This document shows positions 51,440 to 57,712 of a DNA stretch of 64,000 nucleotides, piece by piece; the first letter of the stretch is position 1, and the number at the start of each line of letters is the position of its first letter. The DNA comes from an uncultured Chlorobiaceae bacterium (GTDB lineage Bacteria > Bacteroidota > Chlorobiia > Chlorobiales > Chlorobiaceae). The stretch spans positions 68,920 through 132,919 of the forward strand of contig CAIMPI010000042.1 of assembly GCA_903843305.1 (NCBI GenBank). Reading direction: 5' to 3'. The notes under the pieces are model-generated. The model ran no database searches. It was not told where the DNA came from and was given only the letters and a program-made list of their open reading frames with translations. A program made the position numbers and the translations under genes.

Positions 51440-51593
51440 GAAGCTGATGTGTTGGCAAATGATTGCAAATTGTGTAAATGTAAACAATAATCAAGAATTG
51501 ATGTACATAGTTAAATAATGATGAAGCTTCATTGTCTTGAATGTGCCCAGCAGTGAGTTAATCCGATTTTTTTACGAATCAGAGTGCTTTTTA

Positions 51594-52688
51594 ATGGATA
51601 ATCAGCAGATAACGGTGTGCAGGGAAGTGGCTTTCCGGATGGTTTTGAGGAAAATGATGTGTCAGGCGATAGATGCAACTATTGTGACGGATCTTTCTGT
51701 TATTCGTTGGCTGACAGGCTTCAGCGGTTCAAGTGCACGGTTACTGCTTACAAGGGAAAAAAGCTGGCTGTTTACCGATTTTCGCTACAAGGAGCAGGCC
51801 GTAAGAGAGGTGGCGGTGGCTGAAACGGTTATTGCCACTGACGGGTTTGCTGCTGAGCTTGGTTCTGGACGTTATCCTCTCGGTAACATCGTTGCACTTC
51901 AGTCTGATAGTATCACCTGGCACGAGGCAACTATGCTTATCGAACAGATTTTTGGCAAACAGCAAGTGATACCCGTTGACTCATTTTTCGATGAGTTCAG
52001 GATGTTGAAGAATGAGATTGAGCTCTTGAAGATGCTCCGCGCGGTAGAAATCAGTGAACTTGCGCTTGAAAAAGTGCTTCCTATGATTTCGCCATCAGTG
52101 ACGGAGCTTGATATTGCTGCTGAGATTACTTACCAGCAAAAAAAACTTGGCGCGGAAAAAGACTCTTTTGATCCCATTGTTGCTGGAGGGGCACGTTCAG
52201 CCATGCCTCATGCAACTGCATCAAAAGTCAAGTTCAGGACGGGTGAGCTGATTGTTATCGATATTGGGTGTGTCTATGAAGGGTATGCGTCCGACCAGAC
52301 GAGAACTGTCGCTCTTGGTCATGTTTCAGGTGAAGCCCGGGAGGTTTACCGTATTGTACAGGAAGCTCAAGAGCTTGGTATTGCTTCGGCGAAGTGTGGA
52401 ATGATGGCAAAAGAACTTGATGCCAGGGTTCGTTGCTTCATTGCCGCTCACGGCTACGCAGATGAGTTTGGCCACGGCCTTGGTCACGGTGTTGGTCTCG
52501 ATGTGCATGAGGAGCCCCGGATCAGCCCAAAAGGAGAGCGAGAGTTGCAGGAAAACATGGTATTTACTATTGAGCCGGGTATTTATCTGCCAGGTAAATT
52601 CGGTGTGCGCATTGAGGACACTGTTGTGATGGGCCCGCATGGTGCTACTCCCTTGCAGCGGTTCAGTAAGGAGTTTATAGAGTTGTGA
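51594..52688 (+). CDS. pepP: Xaa-Pro aminopeptidase family M24 peptidase
   Basis: Pita-bread-fold dinuclear metallopeptidase that removes N-terminal residues next to proline. Metal ligands: the aspartates in VIDIGCVYEG and YASDQTR, the histidine in GHGLGHGVGLDVHE and the glutamates in FTIEPGIYLPG and VRIEDTV. The N-terminal creatinase-like domain fills about residues 1-130. ATG 51594 (MDNQQITVCREV) is preferred over 51537. PepP or PepQ-like naming is not decidable from sequence alone. Confidence 0.88.
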   Translation: MDNQQITVCREVAFRMVLRKMMCQAIDATIVTDLSVIRWLTGFSGSSARLLLTREKSWLFTDFRYKEQAVREVAVAETVIATDGFAAELGSGRYPLGNIVALQSDSITWHEATMLIEQIFGKQQVIPVDSFFDEFRMLKNEIELLKMLRAVEISELALEKVLPMISPSVTELDIAAEITYQQKKLGAEKDSFDPIVAGGARSAMPHATASKVKFRTGELIVIDIGCVYEGYASDQTRTVALGHVSGEAREVYRIVQEAQELGIASAKCGMMAKELDARVRCFIAAHGYADEFGHGLGHGVGLDVHEEPRISPKGERELQENMVFTIEPGIYLPGKFGVRIEDTVVMGPHGATPLQRFSKEFIEL

Positions 52689-52724: not shown

Positions 52725-54140
52725 TGGATTTTAATAGCCATTTGGAATAAGGACAAAGAAATGATAAGTTTTTTCTGTATTTTATGCTTGCATAATCATA
52801 CCTGATTTTGGCTCTATGTTCTCGCTAAAATATGCTAACAATGATTGAAAAAAACGAATTACTGAAAAAAATCAGTGCGATCGAGCAAAGCGAGGAGTCT
52901 GTGATTGCTATTTACTCGAATCATATCCAGCATGTTATCAGATATTCCACACTCGGAAAGGATGTTCAGGTTAAGATACTTGACATGCTGCAAAAACTGA
53001 ATTCGGATCTGCAAGAACATAATTCCACCACAAAGGAACTCATTGAATCCATTGTAAAAAGCGGAAAAAATGTTTTTTAACAAAGATTTGCGTGGATTTT
53101 TTGGATCCATCATAGAAACCAAAAAACAAAAGCAAGATATTCTTACGACTCTTGCGTCTAATGTTGATGACATGGATATTGAGGAGACTTCTGAGCCCGT
53201 ATACATGGATGATCAACCCCAGCAGAGTCAAGATCTTGTCAATGACTTGCAGGGTAATGATTTGAACCCTCATCATCAATCTCCCGCTCCCCAAACTTTT
53301 AAACCCAAAACCATAAATATTCTTAAACATCCACTATGTGAGGTTTTTGGTTTTATGGCAACAGACCAGTCGTCCAAGGCACAACGGTACCGTTCGCACA
53401 GGCATTGTCCATTTAATAATAAAGTTCCAAACTGTACCAACGATCAGATAAATAATCCTCTGGGAGTATGCAGTATTTTGCAAAACAACAAGCCAGTGAT
53501 AACGTGTCCGATTCGTTTTCGTGAAGACTGGCTGATTACTGATGATGCCGCTTCCTTCTTTTTTGAAGAAAGTGTTAGTTGGGGTTCGTTGACGGAAGTT
53601 CCTTTGAATGATGCTGATGGAAAATCAGCCGGAAATATAGATGTGATGCTCGTCGCTTATGATGAACGAGGCAAAATGATTGATTTTGGGGTGCTTGAGG
53701 TTCATGCCGCATCTATTTCTGGAAATTTGCATGATCCATTCGAGTATTATATGAAAGATCCCAAAGCGAATGCTTTAATGGACTGGGCAGCACAACCAAA
53801 CTACCCACAACCGGATTTTCTTTCTGCAGAAAGAAAAAGTGTTTTTCCGCAGCTTTTATTTAAAGGCCGTATTTTACATTCATGGCATAAAAAAATGGCA
53901 GTGGCCATTGATAAAAGCTTGTTTGACACGCTTCCGGCGTTGAATCCAGTAAAGAAGGAAGATGCTGATATTGCCTGGCTCATTTACGATCTCGAACTGA
54001 CAGCCGGAGATAAGGAACATTATCATCTTAAAAAGATTGGAGAGGTATACACGGCATTTCAACCGACCATGTTAGCTTTAACAGCAATATCTCCAGGCAA
54101 TGTTGGCGATTTTGTGAAATTTCTTCCAGAACTGGACAGT
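52725..54140 (+). repeat. Inverted duplication, arm A
   Basis: Covers the upstream region and both genes of cassette A. Its upstream part (TGGATTTTAA, then CATTTGGAATAAGG and AAAGAAATGATAAGTTTTTT) is matched on the opposite strand near 56443-56490, and its main gene matches the gene at 54905-56242. Identity is partial, so this is an old duplication, not a recent one. The arm boundaries are approximate. Confidence 0.7.
52841..53080 (+). CDS. Small helical protein coupled to the NotI-like gene
   Basis: A 79-residue protein, all-helical by eye and acidic at its start (MIEKNELLKKISAIEQSEES). Spaced Glu/His positions (EESVIAIYSNHIQHVIR, then SDLQEHNSTTKELIESI) recall half of a ferritin-like four-helix bundle, but metal binding is not shown. 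ATG 52832 is an alternative start. The stop lies 11 bases inside the start of the NotI-like gene, so the two are translated together. A decayed copy lies upstream of the second NotI-like gene. Confidence 0.6.
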   Translation: MIEKNELLKKISAIEQSEESVIAIYSNHIQHVIRYSTLGKDVQVKILDMLQKLNSDLQEHNSTTKELIESIVKSGKNVF

Positions 54141-54143
54141 TAA
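53070..54143 (+). CDS. NotI-like restriction-endonuclease-fold protein, copy A
   Basis: A 357-residue protein whose C-terminal 265 residues resemble the restriction enzyme NotI. A four-cysteine site follows the NotI pattern: C113 (RHCPF), C122 (NCT), C134 (GVC) and C146 (TCPIR); in NotI such cysteines hold one iron atom. The nuclease core has D191 (GNIDVML) and E210 in GVLEVHAASISG, matching NotI GVLEIQT; NotI has Gln where this has His212. The first 40 residues (MFFNKDLRGFFGSIIETKKQ) are helical, and a Gln/Pro/Asp-rich linker follows. No methyltransferase gene is visible. It is coupled to the small gene upstream. Nuclease activity, target and role are not proven. Confidence 0.72.
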   Translation: MFFNKDLRGFFGSIIETKKQKQDILTTLASNVDDMDIEETSEPVYMDDQPQQSQDLVNDLQGNDLNPHHQSPAPQTFKPKTINILKHPLCEVFGFMATDQSSKAQRYRSHRHCPFNNKVPNCTNDQINNPLGVCSILQNNKPVITCPIRFREDWLITDDAASFFFEESVSWGSLTEVPLNDADGKSAGNIDVMLVAYDERGKMIDFGVLEVHAASISGNLHDPFEYYMKDPKANALMDWAAQPNYPQPDFLSAERKSVFPQLLFKGRILHSWHKKMAVAIDKSLFDTLPALNPVKKEDADIAWLIYDLELTAGDKEHYHLKKIGEVYTAFQPTMLALTAISPGNVGDFVKFLPELDS

Positions 54144-54331
54144 AATAATGGTAGCTTCAAGAATTTTGCTTGTGCGTTTGGGTATTTTCTATTCTGACCG
54201 CAAGACAAACTTCAAATAGTCGTGCGAAAGTTGGTTGGCACCAACAAAAAAAACATCTCCTCACTGAGAAGATCAGCCTGCCACTTAAAATATGAGCACG
54301 AAAAGAAAAATGAGTACAGGAAAAAGTATAG

Positions 54332-54523
54332 TTACCTCTCCCAGTGCTCAGATGCAGGAAGACCCGCTATATAGTGAGTCATCATCAAATCCCACTCTAC
54401 CTTCCTGATCTCGGCCAGCGTACATGCAAACCCTTCCTCTCGAATAAATGCGCTTAACCTATCTTTAAGTGCAAGATCTGATTGGAGTTTTTCGATGAAC
54501 TTTTTTGCTTGTTCTTCTGACAT
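54332..54523 (-). CDS. Nif11-like leader-peptide family protein
   Basis: A 63-residue protein matching the Nif11 domain: MSEEQAKKFIEKLQSDLAL, KDRLSAFIREEGF and AEIRKVEWDL. Nif11 domains occur in nitrogen-fixation regions and as leader peptides of ribosomal natural products. Here there is no GG or GA cleavage motif and only about 15 residues follow the domain, so no obvious core peptide. GGGAG lies 6 bases before ATG 54523; the frame is open to 54559. It sits alone between the two NotI-like genes, and no modifying enzyme is visible nearby. Confidence 0.75.
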   Translation of the reverse strand: MSEEQAKKFIEKLQSDLALKDRLSAFIREEGFACTLAEIRKVEWDLMMTHYIAGLPASEHWER

Positions 54524-54904
54524 AATTAGCTCCCGTTGATTAACATCAAAACGAACCAAAATAACATCTGAATATATCTGATCTGAGTAATTTCTTCGCC
54601 TGATTTACACATTAGATGTATCCACATCTAACCTCAGATAAAAAAACCTTTACCTTAAAACCAAATTTTCTTGATAAAAGTTCTTTTTTCGCAAATACAC
54701 TTTCCTCAAATGGTGCCACAGAATCGAACCCGAAGCTGCCATTGAAGCATTAGAATTTATATTAATATTCTGTTTGAGTATTGGTCTTATCAGAATGAAG
54801 GTTGTTTATGACAGTTAAAACAACTTATACCTTACAACTGAAAAGTAAATTACAACCAGTATTGCTACTGGTTGTGAGGCTAGCTCTGTGAATAATCTGT
54901 TTAT
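54524..54904. other. 380-base region between Nif11 and copy B
   Basis: No ORF of note. It holds a terminator-like hairpin near its right end and, at 54715-54745, a string resembling the T-loop of a tRNA (minus strand GGGTTCGATTC) that does not fold into a tRNA. Confidence 0.5.
54852..54875 (-). terminator. Hairpin after NotI-like copy B
   Basis: A perfect 10-bp stem (ACAACCAGTA / TACTGGTTGT) with loop TTGC, followed on the minus strand by T-rich sequence. It is 30 bases past the copy B stop. Confidence 0.6.
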
Positions 54905-56242
54905 TCAACTGGTCTGTTCCGGCAAAAATTTCACAAAATCATCAACATTGCCTGGAGATATCGCGGTTATAAACGACAGTGTTGATTTGAATTCCGTGTA
55001 TACTACATCAATCTTTTTGAGCTGATAACGTTCTTTATCTCCATCAATTATTGATTCAAGATCGTAAATGAGCCAAGCAATATCAGCATCCTCTTTTTTT
55101 ACACGATTTAAAGTCGGAAGGGTATCAAACAGGCTTTTATTGATGGCTACTGCCATTTTCTTATTCCATGAATGTAAAATTCCACCTTTAAATAAAAGTT
55201 GAGGGACAAGACTTTTCCTTGCCGCAGAAAGAAAGTCTGGTTGTGGATAGTTCGGTTGTGCTGTCCAATCCATTAACGCATTGGCCTTGGGATCTTTCAT
55301 GTAATATTCAAAAGGCTCACGTAAATTTCCTGAAACAAATGCGGCATGAACCTCAAGTGCTCCGAAATCAATTATTTTACCCCGGTCATCATAAGCGACG
55401 AGCATAACATCAATATTTCCTGAAGATTTCCCATTAGCATCGTTCAGAGGCACTTCTGTTAGTGTGCTCCAGCGAGTACCTTCTTCAAAAAAGAAGGACG
55501 CAGCATCATCAGTAATCAGCCAGTCTTCACGAAACCGCACAGGACAGGTGATGACAGGTTTATTGTTATGTAAAATACTGCACACTCCGAGAGGATTTTT
55601 CGAGTATTTGTTGGTGCAGTTTGGCACCTTATTATTGAACGGGCAATGCCGATGTGAACGGTACCGTTGTGCCTTTGGTGACTGATCAGTTGCCGTAAAA
55701 CCAAAAATCTCACCTAACGGATGCTTAATCGTGCTCATGTTATGAAAAGTTTGCGTAGTGGTAGGCTGAAAATGAGTACTCGAATCATGTGGCGGGATGT
55801 CTTCAACAAGCTTAATATTATGCTGAAGTTGATCAACATGTTGTTGATCAGCCATATCTGTTTTTGACAAAGCAGGTTGCGTAGTTACTGGTTGAAAATA
55901 AGCGACAGGCTCAAGCGCCTCGACTTCTTTAACAAGCTCTGGACTCTGCTGAATTTGATCCTCCTGGAGCGGCTCTTCAATATCAGTTTGCTCCAAAGGT
56001 GTTTGCTCAATGAGAGCTTCTTCATAACGGGGTTCTTCGACGTGCTCCACACCGTTAACCAGATCAATACTCTGCTGAATTTGATCGACATGTCGTTGTT
56101 CATCCATGCCTATGCGAAGCAAAGTATCCTTTATGTCCAAATCTTCAACATCAGCCGCAAGAGAATTGAAAATATCACGCTTCTGTTTTTTTATCTCCAT
56201 CATGGAGCCGAAAAATTCAAGCAAATCTTTATTAATAAACAT
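54905..56242 (-). CDS. NotI-like restriction-endonuclease-fold protein, copy B
   Basis: A 445-residue paralogue of copy A, facing it tail to tail. From about residue 172 to the end the two are near-colinear (TIKHPLGEIFG, CPFNNKVPNCT, GVCSIL, TCPVRFREDW). The four cysteines are C200, C209, C221 and C233, the acidic pair is D278 and E297, and NotI's Gln is again His (H299). The N-terminal helix (MFINKDLLEFFGSMMEIKKQ) is also shared. Between them lies a longer 130-residue acidic linker with diverged repeats of a DEQRHVDQIQQSIDLV-type unit. No methylase is present. An intact small partner gene is missing, but its remnant lies just upstream. Confidence 0.72.
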   Translation of the reverse strand: MFINKDLLEFFGSMMEIKKQKRDIFNSLAADVEDLDIKDTLLRIGMDEQRHVDQIQQSIDLVNGVEHVEEPRYEEALIEQTPLEQTDIEEPLQEDQIQQSPELVKEVEALEPVAYFQPVTTQPALSKTDMADQQHVDQLQHNIKLVEDIPPHDSSTHFQPTTTQTFHNMSTIKHPLGEIFGFTATDQSPKAQRYRSHRHCPFNNKVPNCTNKYSKNPLGVCSILHNNKPVITCPVRFREDWLITDDAASFFFEEGTRWSTLTEVPLNDANGKSSGNIDVMLVAYDDRGKIIDFGALEVHAAFVSGNLREPFEYYMKDPKANALMDWTAQPNYPQPDFLSAARKSLVPQLLFKGGILHSWNKKMAVAINKSLFDTLPTLNRVKKEDADIAWLIYDLESIIDGDKERYQLKKIDVVYTEFKSTLSFITAISPGNVDDFVKFLPEQTS

Positions 56243-56490
56243 ATTCTCAGCTTGTTATAATGGATGCCATGAGCTTCTTTATCGTAGGTACTGCAGGCCA
56301 AAATTCAGCTATTTCAAACAATTTGAAAAATAACCTGCACTTTCTATTCGAGTGTTGAAAATCTGAAAAGATGCAATAAGCATAATGTACCAAACATCAC
56401 AAATCAGGAAGCATTTTGTGCGAAATGTATATAAAAAATTTATCATTTCTTTTCTCTTATTCCAAATAGCAGTCATCCATTTAAAATCCA
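54908..56490 (-). repeat. Inverted duplication, arm B
   Basis: Minus-strand counterpart of arm A: NotI-like gene, decayed small gene and upstream region. The outermost match is TGGATTTTAA near 56490, then GCTATTTGGAATAAG and AAAGAAATGATAAATTTTTT. The centre between the arms (about 760 bases) holds the Nif11-like gene. Confidence 0.65.
56246..56372 (-). pseudogene. Decayed copy of the small helical gene
   Basis: On the minus strand, TCAGATTTTCAACACTCG, then GCTGAATTTTGGCCTGCAG and AAAGAAGCTCATGGCATCC align, in order and spacing, with the 3' half of the small gene at 52841-53080 (TCAGATATTCCACACTCG, ACTGAATTCGGATCTGCA, AAAGGAACTCATTGAATCC). Stops interrupt the frame and the 5' third of the gene is deleted. 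This shows the pair of genes was once duplicated as a unit. Confidence 0.65.
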
Positions 56491-56533: not shown

Positions 56534-57712
56534 TTAAAGTTCCTTATGCAGCAACGTCTTGATATCGGCAGTAAAAGAGGACATGACAAGGAGTGGATTG
56601 GCATTGCGTTCTATAGCGCGGATGGCTTCTTCGGTGATGGTTGAGATCTGAAAAAAATCCGGGTTGGGGAAATTTTTGATAAAACGGTCTATTGCATCAG
56701 TAATATCAGGGTTATTTAGTTCCTGAAAATTCTTATTGATCTTGCGGTGGTTAGCGTCCTGAAAGAAGAGCAGAAGAGCAGCAAGAAATAGGGTGAGGTT
56801 ACTGCGTGTAAGATTTTTAGCGTTTTGCTCGCATGAACTGATCGCTTCGTGGAACCGGTTTGGTGATAGTACTTTCCGCAAGTAGTCGAGTGCCTGGTTA
56901 CGGAGCATAATCGTTGCGGTTTCTGAAGGGTCGCAGTCGCTGTCGCGATTGTTGATTAACTCCCATGCCAACCGAAGGTTACCTCTTGAGAAACTGACGA
57001 TAAAACTCAGTTCAGGGTCTACAATTTCCGGGCGGTTTTCTTTCAGCCAGAGCAGCAGTTCATGGGTAGTAACTCGTGAAAACCTGATAGCCTGACATCT
57101 CGAACGGATGGTTGGCAGCAGCGCTTCAGGTCTTGATGAAACAAGAATGAAAATGACGTGGGGTGGCGGTTCTTCAAGCAGTTTCAGAAGCTTGTTTGCT
57201 GCCGAAGGGTGCAGCCTTTCGGCCTGTGAAATAATGAAAATCTTTTGGTTTCCCTTGTTCGGCATGAATATTGCCTTATGCTGAAGAGTGATGATTTGTT
57301 CGGTTAGAATTCCCATCGATCGCTCCATTGCAGGTGCGAAATAGGGGTTCTGCTTTTTTTGCTCAAGCAGTACATCGTAGCGTTCTTTTGCTTCGGTAAA
57401 GCGCTTGTTCTCTTTTTTTGTGGTGTCGCCCGGATCAAGCAGGGCTGATTCTACAGGAAAAATATACTCCACGTTCGGGTGCATGAACGATTGGATTTGC
57501 AGGCAATCAGGGCATGACTCACATGATCCAGTCTTATAGCTGGTTGGTGCATTCCGGCAGTTGAGAATGGATGCAATTTCAAAGGCGACAGACTCTTTTC
57601 CGGACCCGTCAGGTCCTGTGAACAAGTAGGCATGAGCAAAACGTCCTGTTTCAAGCGCTTTTTGTAGGACGCAAATCTGTTGTTGCTGACCGATAATGTT
57701 TTTCCAGCTCAT
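56534..57712 (-). CDS. holB: DNA polymerase III delta' subunit
   Basis: Clamp-loader ATPase-like subunit (392 residues). The P-loop region is FTGPDGSGKES and is degenerate, as expected for delta'. A four-cysteine zinc module (CRNAP, CESCPDC) follows, then the clamp-loader motifs (AERLHPSAANKLLKLLEEPP, SSRPEALLPTIRSRC). An insertion of about 50 residues after the zinc module (EYIFPVESALL to about EQIITLQ) makes it longer than E. coli HolB. It begins 16 bases after the ilvE stop. Confidence 0.9.
   Translation of the reverse strand: MSWKNIIGQQQQICVLQKALETGRFAHAYLFTGPDGSGKESVAFEIASILNCRNAPTSYKTGSCESCPDCLQIQSFMHPNVEYIFPVESALLDPGDTTKKENKRFTEAKERYDVLLEQKKQNPYFAPAMERSMGILTEQIITLQHKAIFMPNKGNQKIFIISQAERLHPSAANKLLKLLEEPPPHVIFILVSSRPEALLPTIRSRCQAIRFSRVTTHELLLWLKENRPEIVDPELSFIVSFSRGNLRLAWELINNRDSDCDPSETATIMLRNQALDYLRKVLSPNRFHEAISSCEQNAKNLTRSNLTLFLAALLLFFQDANHRKINKNFQELNNPDITDAIDRFIKNFPNPDFFQISTITEEAIRAIERNANPLLVMSSFTADIKTLLHKEL

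What the first reader, a model, noticed from the sequence alone, without database searches (positions are those of the whole stretch)
52725..56490. Tail-to-tail pair of NotI-like proteins without a methyltransferase
Two paralogous genes (53070-54143 plus, 54905-56242 minus) encode a domain with the NotI four-cysteine pattern and a matching acidic pair in GVLEVHA/GALEVHA. The NotI family has Gln at the third active-site position; both copies have His. I see no DNA methyltransferase in the window, which a classical restriction enzyme would need. Together with the coupled helical gene this could be an orphan nuclease, a defence module that uses another discriminator, or an inactive DNA-binding relative.
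Basis: partly seen in the sequence, partly recalled or inferred. Interest (0 to 1): 0.75.

Follow-up and report, generated by a model that had tools for sequence, protein, structure and literature searches.

The report
Restriction-enzyme fold captured by polysaccharide operon protein
In green sulfur bacteria the fold of a NotI-like DNA-cutting enzyme was fused to half of a small ferritin-like protein from a cellulose-type polysaccharide operon; it has no cognate methyltransferase and an altered active site, and here it exists as two back-to-back copies that each keep a different half of the helper protein, so it looks like a recycled enzyme rather than a restriction system.

Summary
Both genes encode full NotI domains (PF12183, E=3e-50 and 5e-57), and an AlphaFold model of the minus copy superposes on NotI (Z 20.2, 264 residues). 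It does not look like an orphan restriction system.

Relatives fall into three groups. (A) Ordinary ~293-aa nucleases beside a D12 adenine methyltransferase, E-x-Q. (B) Single long fusions at the end of a TPR/BcsA-like/BcsZ-like polysaccharide operon. (C) This convergent pair, fixed between an M24 peptidase gene and holB in eight genomes, E/D-x-H in 16/16 copies, without the cognate methyltransferase.

The fused N-terminus and the coupled helical gene look like two halves of a split four-helix, ferritin-like bundle. Unfused, they are a two-gene module of the same operon, present in 27/27 genomes of the genus that hold it. In the pair the halves were lost reciprocally: the peptidase-side copy keeps the small gene but has a decayed hairpin; the holB-side copy keeps the hairpin but only a relic of the small gene.

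Best reading: an exapted, probably non-cleaving NotI-fold protein serving the polysaccharide system, now one two-locus complex. Whether it still binds or cuts DNA is open.

The parts
52740..52766 (+). Conserved upstream element ATTTGGAATAAGGACAAAGAAATGATA of the peptidase-side copy (promoter-like, possible operator)
   Evidence: Near-identical in all pair copies, related form in 8 of 9 single fusions; only two sites with up to 3 mismatches in the 2.59-Mb genome, reversed-pattern control 0
52841..53080 (+). Small helical protein, 79 aa: helices 1-2 of the split ferritin-like bundle
   Evidence: Conserved in 26 of 65 genus genomes by single-sequence search; AlphaFold helical hairpin, pLDDT 84
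53070..54143 (+). Peptidase-side NotI fusion protein, 357 aa; N-terminal hairpin decayed, NotI domain intact (E-V-H)
   Evidence: PF12183 E=2.8e-50; NotI-domain omega about 0.09 but hairpin omega 0.43 across this copy in seven genomes
54332..54523 (-). Nif11-domain ORF, 63 aa, between the two 3' ends
   Evidence: PF07862 28.4 bits, cut-off 23.8; present in 8 of 8 pair genomes and upstream of most single fusions
54905..56242 (-). holB-side NotI fusion protein, 445 aa: hairpin 1-64 (helices 3-4), disordered linker 66-172, NotI domain 173-440 (C200 C209 C221 C233, D278, E297, H299, K343)
   Evidence: PF12183 E=5.3e-57; AlphaFold model; NotI 3c25 Z 20.2; hairpin like encapsulated ferritins Z about 10
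56243..56374 (-). Relic of the small helical gene in front of the holB-side copy
   Evidence: blastn 67.6% over 145 nt, E=6e-8 in the window; relics in the other pair genomes 1e-16 to 1e-3
56441..56467 (-). Second copy of the conserved upstream element, ATTTGGAATAAGAGAAAAGAAATGATA

Best explanation
Shown: a NotI-type nuclease domain of the genus was fused to the second protein of a two-gene, split four-helix module that accompanies a cellulose-synthase-like operon; the fusion lost any link to a methyltransferase; one lineage moved it between an M24 peptidase gene and holB, duplicated it tail to tail, changed the active-site Gln to His, and then lost opposite halves of the helical module from the two copies, while both NotI domains stay under strong purifying selection. 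Inferred: the two loci make one hetero-complex, in which the small protein from the peptidase side pairs with the hairpin of the holB-side protein, and the two NotI domains dimerise as NotI does. Inferred: it serves the polysaccharide synthase as a regulator or assembly adaptor, does not cut DNA efficiently, and may bind its own conserved upstream element.
For: Unfused two-gene form (79 + 65-90 aa) found in other genomes of the genus, beside the same TPR/GT2/GH8 genes. Operon genes: GT2 like cellulose synthase (TIGR03030 E=1e-69, below the curated cut-off), GH8 like BcsZ, TPR. Small gene and GH8 co-occur: 24/26 against 3/39 genomes, p=2e-12, while group A restriction genes show no link, p=1. 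The 3 exceptions also carry a divergent pair, so 27/27. Tree: B+C one clade 100/100, C one clade 97/97. Gln at 299 in all non-pair homologues covering the site, His in 16/16 pair copies. Methyltransferase directly beside nearly all group A copies and absent from the pair genomes except one weak 24% hit in G280. Lys343 is invariant in group A but lost in 9/9 B and 9/16 C; Arg344 is lost in all B and C. Omega: NotI domains 0.06-0.09 in all groups; hairpin 0.06 (holB side) against 0.43 (peptidase side). Small-gene relic at the holB side. Both copies in the same position in eight genomes.
Against: No experiment and no model of the complex. Ferritin-likeness of the first half is weak by sequence and its fold search was uninformative. 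Asp278 and Glu/Asp297 remain acidic in 25/25 fusions and the window copies keep Lys343, so metal binding or some cleavage is not excluded. The NotI domain became acidic (median net charge +1 in A, -8 in B, -4.5 and -6 in C) and lost 5-6 of 22 conserved basic positions, which speaks against unchanged DNA binding. Co-occurrence counts are not corrected for phylogeny, and most genomes are draft metagenome bins.
Confidence: 0.6

Rival explanations
1. Active nuclease with an altered E-x-H site, working as a defence or self-targeting enzyme gated by the helical partner instead of by methylation.
For: NotI fold, Cys4, Asp278, Glu/Asp297 and (in the window copies) Lys343 are kept, under strong purifying selection. 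PADLOC gives only the generic type II restriction enzyme model.
Against: Gln299, invariant elsewhere in the family, is lost in all 16 pair copies, Arg344 in all fusions, Lys343 in all single fusions and most pair copies. No methyltransferase partner, no defence neighbours, fixed chromosomal place, linkage to a polysaccharide operon.
Confidence: 0.17
2. Catalytically dead sequence-specific DNA-binding protein acting as a transcriptional regulator of itself and of the polysaccharide operon.
For: A ~27-bp element upstream of both copies is conserved although synonymous sites are near saturation, and occurs only twice in the genome. 16-17 of 22 conserved basic residues and all four Cys are kept.
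Against: The element also reads as a sigma-70 type promoter; its spacer differs by one base between B and C; no site was found elsewhere in the own genome. The domain is net acidic.
Confidence: 0.35
3. Decaying remnant of a restriction-modification system without present function.
For: One copy has lost its hairpin, the other its small gene; methyltransferase gone.
Against: Omega 0.08-0.09 for both NotI domains with dS above 1; intact in all eight genomes; reciprocal, not random, loss.
Confidence: 0.04

Closest known systems
NotI restriction endonuclease (PF12183; PDB 3c25, 3bvq)
   Same: Whole domain by profile and by structure (Z 20.2 over 264 residues), Cys4 element, Asp and Glu of the active site
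   Different: His for Gln at the third position (PMC4081073 states that NotI has Gln there), N-terminal ferritin-like hairpin plus disordered linker, no cognate methyltransferase
Group A NotI-like type II systems of the same genus and of many other phyla (NotI homologue + D12 methyltransferase)
   Same: 61-76% identity over the NotI domain; sister lineage in the tree
   Different: Stand-alone 293-aa enzyme, invariant Q299, K343, R344, methyltransferase adjacent
Encapsulated-ferritin type hairpins (EncB, EncC, EncFtn) and designed diiron hairpins (1mft)
   Same: Two-helix hairpin with E and ExxH; second-half profile matches designed diiron proteins, structure Z about 10
   Different: Here split over two genes; the helix-3 Glu ligand is Lys in the NotI-fused forms; no encapsulin was looked for
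Cellulose synthase operons (BcsA, BcsZ, BcsC)
   Same: GT2 and GH8 match BcsA and BcsZ models, TPR protein like PgaA/BcsC
   Different: All below the curated cut-offs; ferritin-like pair and NotI fusion are not part of described bcs operons known to me

Membership tests
NotI family (PF12183) | Profile score over curated cut-off | tested here: met
   171 and 193 bits against 22
NotI family (PF12183) | NotI fold with PD-(D/E)xK core | tested here: met
   AlphaFold model against 3c25 Z 20.2, rmsd 3.5, 264 residues
NotI family (PF12183) | Four metal-binding cysteines | tested here: met
   C200, C209, C221, C233 in all 25 fusions; metal itself not testable
NotI family (PF12183) | Active site D...E-x-Q with an invariant Lys in the following helix | tested here: not met
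   E-x-H in all pair copies; Arg344 lost; Lys343 kept in the window copies but not in most others
Type II restriction-modification system | Cognate methyltransferase gene | tested here: not met
   No D12 methyltransferase match to the group A partner in the own genome; unrelated N6/N4 enzymes exist
Ferritin-like superfamily | Pfam ferritin-like profile over cut-off | tested here: not met
   Best is Rubrerythrin E=3.6e-4, 21.3 bits against 22.8, for a concatenated unfused pair; others weaker
Ferritin-like superfamily | Four-helix bundle architecture | tested here: inconclusive
   Each half is a predicted helical hairpin; the second resembles encapsulated ferritins, the first has no telling match
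Ferritin-like superfamily | Complete set of diiron ligands | tested here: not met
   Helix-3 Glu is Lys in the NotI-fused forms
Nif11 RiPP precursor | Nif11 leader profile | tested here: inconclusive
   Pfam Nif11 over cut-off (28.4/23.8); NCBIfam leader model just below (30.6/32.3); no core peptide evident

The most novel reading that the evidence does not exclude
Reciprocal loss after duplication has split one metalloprotein-like bundle over two convergent loci, so that the pair is an obligate hetero-complex in which a repurposed NotI fold acts as a switch or scaffold for a cellulose-type polysaccharide synthase: a restriction enzyme turned into a component of cell-surface polymer control.
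Probability: 0.35. Interest if true: 0.8.

Novelty: new variant of a known kind. Interest (0 to 1): 0.62.

Why it matters
Restriction enzymes are usually seen as selfish or defensive. Here a chain of intermediates is preserved in living relatives: stand-alone restriction system, unfused helical partner, single fusion with altered active site, then relocated duplicated pair with reciprocal loss. That makes the path from nuclease to housekeeping component testable step by step, and it adds an unexplained two-protein module to cellulose-like operons of green sulfur bacteria.

Tried and rejected
Programmed frameshift joining the small gene to the NotI gene: the overlap is 11 nt in B and C, but the T-run of the window is not conserved (L067 reads GATGTTTATTAATAAAG), so translational coupling is preferred. 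Decaying restriction remnant: rejected by omega 0.06-0.09. Defence island: no defence neighbours, only a generic REase match in PADLOC. D12 hit at C34 of the own genome: below cut-off, no similarity to the group A partner, and better explained by the N6_N4 family. PDB sequence searches with the fusion or with the family alignment found nothing; only the structure comparison reached NotI. Fold search with the small protein gave generic helical hairpins only. Literature searches found no description of such a fusion; the NotI structure paper is not held, so Lys343 could not be assigned a role from it. NCBIfam had no NotI model match.

Full report
1. Observation. Both match PF12183 NotI far over the cut-off, and they are the only NotI hits in the genome. 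They are inverted copies. The small gene is real and overlaps the plus copy by 11 nt. The AlphaFold model of the minus copy (mean pLDDT 75; NotI domain mostly 85-97; residues 68-170 disordered) matches NotI 3c25 with Z 20.2 over 264 residues. The claim is therefore stronger than stated: this is the NotI fold, not a chance motif.

2. Three groups. A search of 394 genomes of the phylum found 40 with NotI domains. Reading the loci gives: group A, about 293 aa, next to a D12-class methyltransferase; group B, 452-543 aa, one copy per genome, 9 genomes; group C, the tail-to-tail pair, 8 genomes, in every case where the contig reaches it between the M24 peptidase gene (window 51537-52688) and the delta-prime subunit gene holB (56534-57712; Pfam identities). 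In one genome (G205) the two copies lie on two contig ends. The tree has B+C as one clade (100/100), B as one (100/100) and C as one (97/97), next to group A of the genus. Group A relatives at up to 69% identity occur in many phyla with their methyltransferase, so the restriction system is mobile while B and C were found only in this genus.

3. Active site. All pair copies have H at 299; every non-pair homologue covering the site has Q. Lys343 is invariant in group A, including distant members at about 25% identity, and is E or Q in all B; in C it is K in 7, N, R or E in 9; both window copies keep it. Arg344 is conserved in nearly all of group A and lost in all B and C. Asp278 and Glu/Asp297 stay acidic in all 25 fusions, and all four Cys stay; but 100 of 267 columns are invariant among the fusions, so this is only mild evidence that metal binding is kept. 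Net charge falls from +1 to -4.5..-8, and 5-6 of 22 conserved basic positions are gone, including K211 and K213 beside a Cys and R334/R344. I take this as loss of ordinary cleavage, probably with changed DNA contact; it is inference.

4. The helical partner. In nine further genomes of the genus the small gene is followed not by a NotI fusion but by a 65-90 aa gene that aligns with the first ~65 residues of the fusions. Concatenated, the two halves show weak but repeated matches to ferritin-like families (Rubrerythrin over 127 residues at 3.6e-4; DUF2202, DUF2383, Ferritin_2), none over the cut-off. The second half matches designed diiron hairpins by profile and encapsulated ferritins by structure. 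The helix-3 Glu ligand is Glu in most unfused forms and Lys in the NotI-fused forms, so iron binding is probably lost there. The first half is a predicted hairpin without a telling match.

5. The operon. The unfused pair and all nine B fusions lie beside genes for a TPR protein, a cellulose-synthase-like GT2 and a BcsZ-like GH8, apart from unfused pairs on short or different contigs. Across 65 genomes the small gene and the GH8 gene co-occur in 24; 2 have only the small gene, 3 only GH8 (p=2e-12); group A restriction genes show no association. A profile search and reading of the three exceptions found a divergent pair beside GH8 in each, so every genome with the operon (27/27) has the pair. 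In the pair-type genomes the operon is kept in 7 of 8 although the fusion has moved away from it. The counts are not corrected for descent.

6. Reciprocal loss. In all eight pair genomes the small gene stands only before the peptidase-side copy, whose own hairpin has decayed (no DEQRH motif; omega 0.43). The holB-side copy keeps the hairpin (omega 0.06) and carries only a relic of the small gene. Both NotI domains remain under omega 0.08-0.09. This is the pattern expected if the two loci now jointly supply one bundle. In G114 and G338 the two NotI domains of a genome are closer to each other than to their orthologues, which suggests gene conversion.

7. Control region. A ~27-bp element is almost unchanged upstream of all pair copies and occurs exactly twice in the genome within 3 mismatches. 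It can be read as TTGGAA-N17-TAAATT (N16 in B), that is, as a promoter; the conserved spacer would also fit an operator. This is undecided.

8. Verdict. Exaptation of a NotI fold into a polysaccharide-linked helical module is well supported by comparative evidence (about 0.8 for 'not a restriction system and not decaying'). The two-locus complex is a strong inference. The biochemical role (DNA-binding regulator, non-DNA scaffold, altered nuclease) is open, and my confidence in the full statement is 0.6.

Noticed in passing
window 54332-54523 (-); L067:5216-5405 and other B loci: A Nif11-domain ORF accompanies the NotI fusions (8/8 pairs, most single fusions) but not the unfused pairs; no core peptide is evident.
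   Followed up: partly
L067:7965-12624 (also L033, L036, L069, L072 by gene sizes): Single fusions lie directly upstream of nifH-glnB-glnB-nifD-nifK in several genomes (Pfam checked in L067 only).
   Followed up: partly
L113-L150: Group A NotI-like genes with D12 methyltransferases at 50-69% identity occur in Planctomycetota, Nitrospirota, Verrucomicrobia, Prevotella and others: a widely transferred restriction system.
   Followed up: partly
L064, L071: The two NotI domains of G114 and G338 cluster by genome pair, suggesting gene conversion between the inverted copies.
   Followed up: no
L061:7642-8769: The decayed N-terminus of this peptidase-side copy contains a short tandem expansion (VADVADVADVADVADVAD).
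   Followed up: no
L062:6236-7111; L068:5823-6611: Group A copies with disrupted N-termini next to intact or split methyltransferase genes: restriction systems in decay.
   Followed up: no
G000:C34:1-1741 (L095): Truncated N6/N4-type methyltransferase at a contig start of the own genome.
   Followed up: no
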